Source: Clostridia bacterium
GTDB lineage: Bacteria; Bacillota; Clostridia; Oscillospirales; Acutalibacteraceae
Direction of reading: 5' to 3'
Length of the DNA stretch: 37,954 nt
NCBI GenBank assembly: GCA_017379935.1
Contig: JAFNVC010000005.1
Span: 1 to 37,954 of the forward strand
Below the pieces are notes generated by a model. The model searched no databases. It had not been told where the DNA came from and was given only the letters and a program-made list of their open reading frames with translations. Shown here in pieces: positions 35,581 through 37,954 of this stretch (position 1 is the stretch's first letter; each line of letters starts with the position of its first letter). The translations under genes were made by a program, and so were the position numbers.

Positions 35581-35610
35581 TTTATAACTTTAATTACCAG
35601 CAAGCCACAA
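35581..35610 (-). promoter_or_regulatory. Possible ylbF promoter in the left arm of the structured element
   Basis: On the minus strand TTGTGG (35610-35605), an 18-bp spacer and TATAAA (35586-35581). The start would be near 35574, with an AAGGAG ribosome site directly after it and the ylbF ATG at 35557. A weak match. The other arm has a mirror copy facing outward on the plus strand. Confidence 0.3.
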
Positions 35611-35863
35611 GGTTTTGAAAGGAATCTTTCCGCCTCGGCTTCGTTAAAAATCTTTGAAATAACCCCGTATTCCTGCAGATTTTTGCCTTGCCTAGACAAA
35701 AACCTTCTCTTTCAAAACTGCTTCGCATCTGAAATACAATAGATTGCGTACAGTCGGGTAGCTTTTCGATGCAGGCATACGCGCGTATGGCAAAGAGAAA
35801 GCTGCCCGAATGTGCGTGATATATTGTATTTCAGACTTGTGTGTTGTTGGAAATTAAAGTTAT
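35584..35863 (+). ncRNA. Candidate structured RNA or MITE-like palindromic element, 280 nt, unidentified
   Basis: No coding region fits this gap. P1 pairs 35584-35611 with 35836-35863 (28 positions: 24 Watson-Crick, 1 G-U, 3 mismatches). P2 pairs 35612-35621 with 35709-35718 (10 bp) and holds an inner stem 35646-35653/35677-35684 (8 bp). P3 pairs 35728-35766 with 35797-35835 (39 positions: 32 Watson-Crick, 5 G-U, 2 mismatches) and is capped by CATACGCGCGTATG (35776-35789). P1 abuts P2 on one side and P3 on the other with no unpaired base. Only 9 nt separate P2 and P3. This is a closed three-way junction. G-U pairs appear only when the plus strand is the RNA. Terminal arms could also be inverted repeats of a MITE. 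I cannot assign it to a known family. Confidence 0.6.
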
Positions 35864-35882
35864 TACTTTTTGTTATACGGAA

Positions 35883-37540: not shown

Positions 37541-37954
37541 TTAGTCTTCCTTCTTGCGAAGTGCAACGATAGCTGCACCGCTAACAGCGAGAAGAGAAAT
37601 AATAGCAGCAGATGCTGTTACGCTGTCACCTGTATCGGGGTTAACAACTTCACCGTCAGCAACGGGAGCATCTGTCTTGTCCTCAGCAGGAGCATCTGTC
37701 TTGTCTTCTGTTGAAGGCTCAGATGAGGGCTCACTTGAGGGTTCTGAAGAAGGCTCAGATGAGGGCTCACTTGAAGGCTCTGAAGAAGGCTCAGATGAGG
37801 GCTCACTTGAAGGCTCTGAAGAAGGCTCAGATGAGGGCTCACTTGAGGGCTCTGAAGAAGGCTCAGATGAGGGCTCACTTGAGGGTTCTGAAGAAGGCTC
37901 AGATGAGGGCTCACTTGAGGGCTCTGAAGAAGGCTCAGATGAGGGCTCACTTGA
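37541..37954 (-). CDS. Ser-Glu-Pro repeat surface protein, C-terminal part with sorting-type signal
   Basis: The minus strand is open from the right edge to a TAA at 37541, giving the last 137 or so residues of a larger protein whose start lies outside the window. From the edge inwards it reads about 80 residues of SSEP tetrapeptides, then [22 protein letters not shown]. Then comes a C-terminal signal: NPDTGDS, a hydrophobic stretch ([21 protein letters not shown]) and a basic end RKKED. This is the order of a sortase sorting signal (LPxTG-type variant NPxTG), so the protein is probably anchored in the cell wall, with the repeat as a flexible wall-spanning stalk. A sortase gene is not in view. 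The functional domain is off-window and unknown. Confidence 0.88.
37713..37954. repeat. 36-bp tandem repeat encoding three SSEP units
   Basis: Copies start at 37713, 37749, 37785, 37821, 37857, 37893 and 37929, the last cut by the edge. Each 36-bp unit encodes three SSEP tetrapeptides with three different codon spellings, so the DNA period is 36 although the peptide period is 4. Copies differ only at two third-codon sites (GGG/GAG-type changes in the ggGctc/ggAgtt part), which points to recent expansion. The copy number will be hard to assemble. Confidence 0.95.

What the first reader, a model, noticed from the sequence alone, without database searches (positions are those of the whole stretch)
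35584..35863. 280-nt three-way-junction element between miaB and ylbF
The only sizeable non-coding gap inside a 25-kb gene run is filled edge to edge by one fold. It has a closing stem of 28 positions, a 10-bp arm with an 8-bp inner stem, and a 39-position arm capped by a CG-rich palindrome. P1 runs directly into P2 at 35611/35612 and P3 runs directly into P1 at 35835/35836, with no unpaired bases. I do not recognise it as any known riboswitch, ribozyme, T-box or large ornate RNA. It could be a new structured RNA or a MITE-type repeat.
Basis: partly seen in the sequence, partly recalled or inferred. Interest (0 to 1): 0.8.

Follow-up and report, generated by a model that had tools for sequence, protein, structure and literature searches.

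The report
Two-armed mobile hairpin of gut Clostridia
The stretch is one copy of a protein-free jumping DNA element found in many Clostridia, built from two mirror copies of one folded hairpin and often sitting in the loops of transcription terminators; what moves it is unknown.

Summary
The fold is real (z -11.4 and -9.7 on the two strands). It is not a fixed RNA gene: the ylbF-miaB gap is only 14-72 nt in 17 of 17 other genomes of the genus, and close copies are scattered in congeners (23 matches in G002, 12 in G006). It is a mobile, protein-free, MITE-like element.

It belongs to a large clostridial family that matched no Rfam family and did not appear in six paper searches. Shared features: length 275-282 bp in 53 of 54 delimited full copies; a closing stem whose sequence differs between lineages but stays paired (92% of cells, 44% shuffled); two arms that are inverted homologous copies of one ~110-nt hairpin, each most stable on the strand running toward its own end (61 and 63 of 67), with strong covariation. 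Flanks carry 2-bp repeats (34 of 54, 10.9 expected), orientation-specific in one lineage; 16 of 54 sit in strong hairpin loops (1.8 expected), many terminator-like. The arm occurs in 17 of 118 genomes of the class. No mobilising gene was found; IS30- and RAYT-type genes do not track carriers.

The parts
35586..35861 (.). whole mobile element (276 bp), closing stem to closing stem
   Evidence: copies in congeners share both ends; empty site in G014
35584..35585 (.). left flanking dinucleotide AT
   Evidence: G014 empty site TTTATAACTTTTTG against the window; in this lineage AT is invariant, so flank repeat and element end cannot be told apart
35862..35863 (.). right flanking dinucleotide AT
   Evidence: as for the left one
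35586..35610 (.). P1, 5' side of the closing stem / left terminal inverted repeat
   Evidence: fold; end shared with copies; pairing kept across lineages
35611..35717 (-). P2 arm: conserved ~110-nt hairpin, preferred strand -, running toward the left end
   Evidence: model R1 97.4 bits; homologous to P3 on the other strand; strand preference of the family
35719..35727 (.). mini-hairpin TGC-TTC-GCA at the junction
   Evidence: fold; part of the core pattern found in 117 or more stretches
35727..35836 (+). P3 arm: second, inverted copy of the hairpin, preferred strand +, running toward the right end
   Evidence: model R1 54.6 bits
35837..35861 (.). P1, 3' side of the closing stem / right terminal inverted repeat
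   Evidence: fold; end shared with copies

Best explanation
A non-autonomous mobile DNA element (MITE-like) of a widespread clostridial family. SHOWN by sequence comparison: it is inserted between miaB and ylbF in this genome and not in 17 others of the genus; copies with the same ends are scattered in congeners; family members have a near-constant full length, lineage-specific terminal inverted repeats that stay paired, two inverted homologous hairpin arms, a 2-bp flanking repeat, and an excess of sites inside hairpin loops, many terminator-like. INFERRED: it is moved in trans by an enzyme encoded elsewhere, which recognises the folded shape (paired ends and one outward-running hairpin per end) more than a fixed end sequence, acts next to a lineage-specific dinucleotide (TT, AA or AT) and inserts into small palindromes. 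Landing in a terminator loop leaves the terminator stem able to form, with the element's stem lengthening it, so such copies do little harm and persist. I put about 0.95 on mobile element and about 0.4 on shape recognition rather than classical end-sequence recognition; the stated confidence is for the statement as a whole.
For: Scattered copies, AT at both junctions in 14 of 14 other two-ended copies of the lineage, deletion derivatives of 108-221 bp, empty sites in 17 of 17 congeners, 2-bp flank repeats 34 of 54 against 10.9 permuted with no clear excess at 3 bp, hairpin-loop sites 16 of 54 against 1.8, orientation-specific TT in the GGGCG lineage: 21 of 25 L ends and 21 of 24 R ends, AA in none of these, end stem paired in 92% of cells with all four Watson-Crick pairs at each of 22 positions, arm homology, arm covariation, strand preference.
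Against: No mobilising gene was found and movement was not observed. A looser loop criterion is weak (26 of 62 against a permuted mean of 12.9, maximum 25). 20 of 54 copies show no 2-bp repeat with the ends as I set them. Sites of the window's own lineage are mostly not terminators. The terminator excess may be survival, not targeting. L204 has AA on both sides, against the TT rule. Ends were chosen by best complementarity and lineages are not independent.
Confidence: 0.7

Rival explanations
1. Classical MITE of a DDE transposase: the element is the joined left and right ends of an insertion sequence, each with a subterminal hairpin; the transposase reads the terminal bases and makes a 2-bp duplication. 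Lineages differ because transposase and ends co-evolve.
For: Inverted terminal repeats, flank repeats, deletion derivatives, mirror-image subterminal arms.
Against: No transposon-sized pair of such ends with a transposase was recognised in seven genomes of the genus or four of another lineage (assemblies are fragmented, so an IS could be missing); IS30 genes in 2 of 15 carriers; TT is orientation-specific in the GGGCG lineage, which a symmetric transposase does not predict.
Confidence: 0.35
2. Single-strand transposition by a Y1/HUH or RAYT-type enzyme acting on the folded element and hairpin targets.
For: Hairpin-loop sites, orientation-specific dinucleotide, strand-specific arms.
Against: RAYT-type genes: 13 of 23 carriers against 11 of 17 genomes without a DNA match; 10 carriers have none. 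Y1_Tnp in 15 of 30 genomes without clear association. None of the family's ends was found beside 20 fetched Y1 loci.
Confidence: 0.15
3. Site-specific recombination (serine recombinase or IS110-like) with a matching 2-bp core; the paired ends would form a palindromic attachment site in a circle.
For: Lineage-specific, orientation-specific dinucleotides.
Against: Some lineages show more than one dinucleotide (GGGCAG: AT and AA; GGGTGAG: AC and AT); I saw no shared target sequence by eye beyond the dinucleotide. These enzyme families were not searched.
Confidence: 0.1
4. A structured RNA gene or cis-regulatory RNA of the miaB-ylbF region.
For: Strong fold on both strands and covariation of the arms.
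Against: Absent from the locus in 17 of 17 congeners; the two arms prefer opposite strands; other copies lie in convergent, tandem and divergent gaps (14, 16 and 8 of 54, 16 undetermined).
Confidence: 0.03

Closest known systems
Bacterial MITEs such as RUP and Correia/NEMIS (passages of PMC2229807 and PMC10969869 seen)
   Same: Short, protein-free, intergenic, terminal inverted repeats, folded transcripts predicted, target duplications
   Different: Those passages give a TA end motif and under 200 bp as typical; here 275-282 bp, AT/AA/TT/AC flanks, two mirror-image covarying arms, end sequences that differ between lineages
YPAL/RU-2 of Yersinia (passage of PMC2229807)
   Same: Palindromic mobile repeat whose targets span or adjoin dyad symmetry
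   Different: 168 bp, internal inverted repeats, duplications of 3-26 bp; here 2 bp
Caulobacter CIR (passage of PMC2229807)
   Same: Two long arms joined by a linker
   Different: No closing stem or inverted homologous arms are described in that passage
REP/RAYT system (PMC2817692 and PMC3733652 seen in search listings only; else recalled)
   Same: Palindromes moved in trans, hairpins
   Different: REPs are 20-40 bp per that abstract; no association with RAYT genes here

Membership tests
MITE (generic) | short, no coding capacity, terminal inverted repeats | tested here: met
   276 bp in the window, paired ends; no ORF of 60 aa or more lies within it, though one listed ORF starts inside its right end at 35841
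MITE (generic) | dispersed copies and target-site duplication | tested here: met
   2-bp flank repeat 34 of 54 against 10.9 permuted
MITE (generic) | ends shared with an autonomous transposon | tested here: inconclusive
   none recognised, but assemblies are fragmented at repeats
IS630-type (RUP-like) MITE | TA target duplication | tested here: not met
   AT in the window's lineage, AA/TT/AT/AC and one TA in others
IS30 derivative | IS30 transposase in carriers | tested here: not met
   2 of 15 carriers
REP/RAYT | RAYT gene in carriers | tested here: not met
   13 of 23 carriers, 11 of 17 genomes without a DNA match
IS200/IS605 derivative | Y1 transposase and no terminal inverted repeats (recalled) | tested here: not met
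   Y1_Tnp in 15 of 30 genomes; terminal inverted repeats are present
Rfam 15 RNA families | score at or above gathering | tested here: not met
IS110, serine recombinase, retron or OMEGA-type systems | recombinase, reverse transcriptase or nuclease common to carriers | not tested

The most novel reading that the evidence does not exclude
A class of mobile elements moved by shape: two outward-running structured hairpins, conserved as RNA or as the strand that leaves the element at each end, with a closing stem of freely variable sequence. A trans-acting enzyme reads the fold, and each arm (possibly as an outward transcript running into the flanking DNA, like a guide) helps select a dinucleotide in hairpin or terminator loops. 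This would be neither a sequence-specific MITE nor a REP.
Probability: 0.2. Interest if true: 0.85.

Novelty: new variant of a known kind. Interest (0 to 1): 0.62.

Why it matters
The arm reaches up to 56 matches per genome and is spread over the class, yet none of the resources searched names it. It shows that a stable fold plus covariation does not by itself mean an RNA gene: here pairing is kept in a mobile repeat. If the strand-specific arms and loop sites reflect the mechanism, the family is a testable system for shape-directed DNA mobility; if not, it is still a useful annotation class that explains many intergenic folds, and contig breaks at repeats, in gut genomes.

Tried and rejected
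A fixed RNA gene at miaB-ylbF: rejected by the empty sites. Rfam: no family. Phage and plasmid records: no match to the window copy; the exact core pattern gave 0 in IMG/VR. IS30 and Y1/RAYT genes: no association with carriers. A 2-kb candidate with two end-like sequences at G006:C91: its ORFs do not look like a transposase to me (no family search was run). A suspected 13-kb element on G000:C17: both arms lie in the same setting of another lineage and I read them as two separate copies. Arms that looked solitary: of 14 fetched stretches, 8 hold an adjacent -/+ pair at E <= 0.01 (L340 weakly; L330 has a further lone arm), 3 lone arms lie at contig ends (L336, L337, L342), and L335, L338 and L341 show no partner at that threshold. 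A one-strand RNA: the strand preference is opposite in the two arms. In the six paper searches I saw listings only; passages of PMC10969869, PMC2267715 and PMC2229807 were seen. No listing showed this family; subscription papers are mostly not held.

Full report
THE OBSERVATION. The 280 nt at 35584-35863 fold as described and far better than shuffles on both strands. A 3-bp mini-hairpin at 35719-35727 sits between the two arms, so four helices meet. No Rfam family matches.

IT IS AN INSERTION. Searching the sequence in 40 genomes, the own one included, gave matches in 9: 23 in congener G002, 12 in G006, 3 in G014, 3 in G013, 2 each in G011 and G004, 16 and 10 partial ones in G020 and G027, and 3 in the own genome (the copy itself, its palindrome on the other strand, and a diverged relative on C10). 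Among the copies I fetched, 14 besides the window's have both ends: 5 of 274-275 bp and 9 derivatives of 108-221 bp that lost parts of the arms. In 14 of 14 AT stands at both junctions; two of them (L037, L043) have changed bases at an end. The ylbF-miaB region was found in all 18 genomes of the genus; in the 17 others the gap is 14-72 nt, too short for the element. The nearest one (G014, 88% identical over the miaB flank) reads TTTATAACTTTTTGTTATA where the window has TTTAT|AACTTT..AAAGTT|ATTACTTTTTG: an insertion at AT with one mismatch. G014's gap also holds a tandem duplication of this stretch.

IT IS ONE LINEAGE OF A LARGE FAMILY. Diverged relatives in the own genome (C10), G013, G020 and G027 fold in the same way and most share the junction core but not the ends. 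Of 54 copies whose ends I could delimit, 53 are 275-282 bp and one is 289 bp; lengths outside 256-289 were excluded by my filter, and shorter derivatives exist. End sequences differ between lineages yet stay paired: over 35 collapsed rows and 22 positions, 92% of cells pair (shuffled mean 44%, maximum 49%; slid 37-45%), with all four Watson-Crick pairs at every position, and G.T 27 against A.C 26, i.e. no strand preference. Ends were chosen by best complementarity, and some rows are shifted versions of one lineage, so these numbers lean upward.

TWO MIRROR ARMS. As RNA, P2 is more stable on the - strand in 61 of 67 elements and P3 on the + strand in 63 of 67, while P1 and the whole element show no preference. 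In helices of 29 chosen elements P3 has G.T 45 against A.C 9; P2 has A.C 43 against G.T 33, of which 28 G.T fall on the first position, which I take for a boundary artefact, leaving 5. On all 67, boundary included, the counts are 88 to 14 for P3 and 88 G.T to 116 A.C for P2. Several of these mismatches recur at the same positions and may be few events. The opposite preferences have a simple cause: P2 reversed and P3 are homologous. A profile of P3(+) hits 64 P2(-) arms at a median of 23 bits (top 42); the same profile gives P2(+) at most 4.2; the converse profile gives P3(+) up to 44 bits and P3(-) up to 13.7. In an alignment of 48 arms from 24 elements each of the 18 predicted pairs shows double changes; 84.7% of cells pair against 62.0% shuffled, and 204 cells are double-changed against 71. 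The structure was derived from this alignment, and related sequences inflate such scores, but slid controls reach only 39-51%. Each arm thus has a preferred strand, the one running 5' to 3' toward its own end. That fits RNA, or the single strand that leaves the element at each end; these data do not decide which.

SPREAD. A model of the arm (R1) found 183 matches in 86 held sources, most of them chosen for the core motif, 4-56 per genome in 12 of 12 carriers, 10 in the own genome on C10, C17, C18, C22 and C25, and matches in 17 of 118 class-wide genomes (own one included), 15 of 94 genera, at E <= 1e-6 with strict filters. By eye several of these show the same two-armed plan with yet other ends, for example L352, L353, L358 and L359; many of the fetched ones lie at contig ends.

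TARGETS. Flanks carry a 2-bp repeat in 34 of 54 copies (permuted mean 10.9, maximum 20 in 1000); at 3 bp it is 3 against 1.7. Empty sites rebuilt from the flanks put the insertion in a hairpin loop at dG <= -10 in 16 of 54 (permuted mean 1.8, maximum 7); many have the A-tract, stem, loop, stem, T-tract make-up of terminators (by eye). A looser criterion is weak: 26 of 62 against a permuted mean of 12.9 and maximum of 25. In the lineage with GGGCG ends (four genomes), TT precedes the L end in 21 of 25 and follows the R end in 21 of 24, and AA occurs in none of these; one other copy, L204, has AA on both sides. The AGGCGG lineage has AA in 5 of 5, apparently all in one genome. Gene contexts: convergent 14, tandem 16, divergent 8, undetermined 16 of 54, from simple ORF calls.

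MOBILISER. None was found. End patterns in seven genomes of the genus and four of another lineage showed no transposon-sized pair that I recognised. IS30 genes were in 2 of 15 carriers, Y1 genes in 15 of 30 genomes, RAYT-type genes in 13 of 23 carriers and in 11 of 17 genomes without a DNA match (those 17 were not screened with R1 and may carry diverged copies).

VERDICT. A real, mobile, structured repeat: by anatomy a new variant of the MITE kind, with shape recognition as the boldest reading. Nothing here shows movement in action or transcription.

Noticed in passing
L102:1519-1565, L107:2412-2461, L108:2340-2377 (G004); L255, L256, L267 (G046, G050): Tiny palindromes of about 28-50 bp made of little more than the two ends of the local lineage: extreme deletion derivatives, or a minimal mobile form.
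   Followed up: partly
L046-L051, L061 (G020): A different multi-copy repeat with ends GGCAACCTCTAAAAAC that by eye holds a single copy of the inner hairpin, so the arm may occur in more than one element architecture.
   Followed up: partly
L238 (G046:C9:45600-46210): A 469-bp member with extra, unrelated-looking sequence inside the P2 arm: something seems to have inserted into the element.
   Followed up: no
L298:1278-1304 and 1858-1887 (G002:C14): A RAYT-type gene flanked on both sides by short perfect palindromes.
   Followed up: no
L344-L351 (G082, G114): Related elements whose ends (TAGGCATAAGRGAGTCGAAT..) include a GTTCGAATC-like stretch reminiscent of a tRNA T arm (resemblance recalled, not tested).
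   Followed up: no
window 37541-37954: The end of an ORF with many SEPS repeats and a C-terminal membrane-anchor-like tail, running off the window.
   Followed up: no
window 35582-35592 and 35855-35865: In sister copies each end with its flank reads TATACT inward, like a -10 hexamer; the window copy has an extra base at both ends (TATAACTTT, AAAGTTAT), a matched change of both ends. Promoter activity not tested.
   Followed up: no
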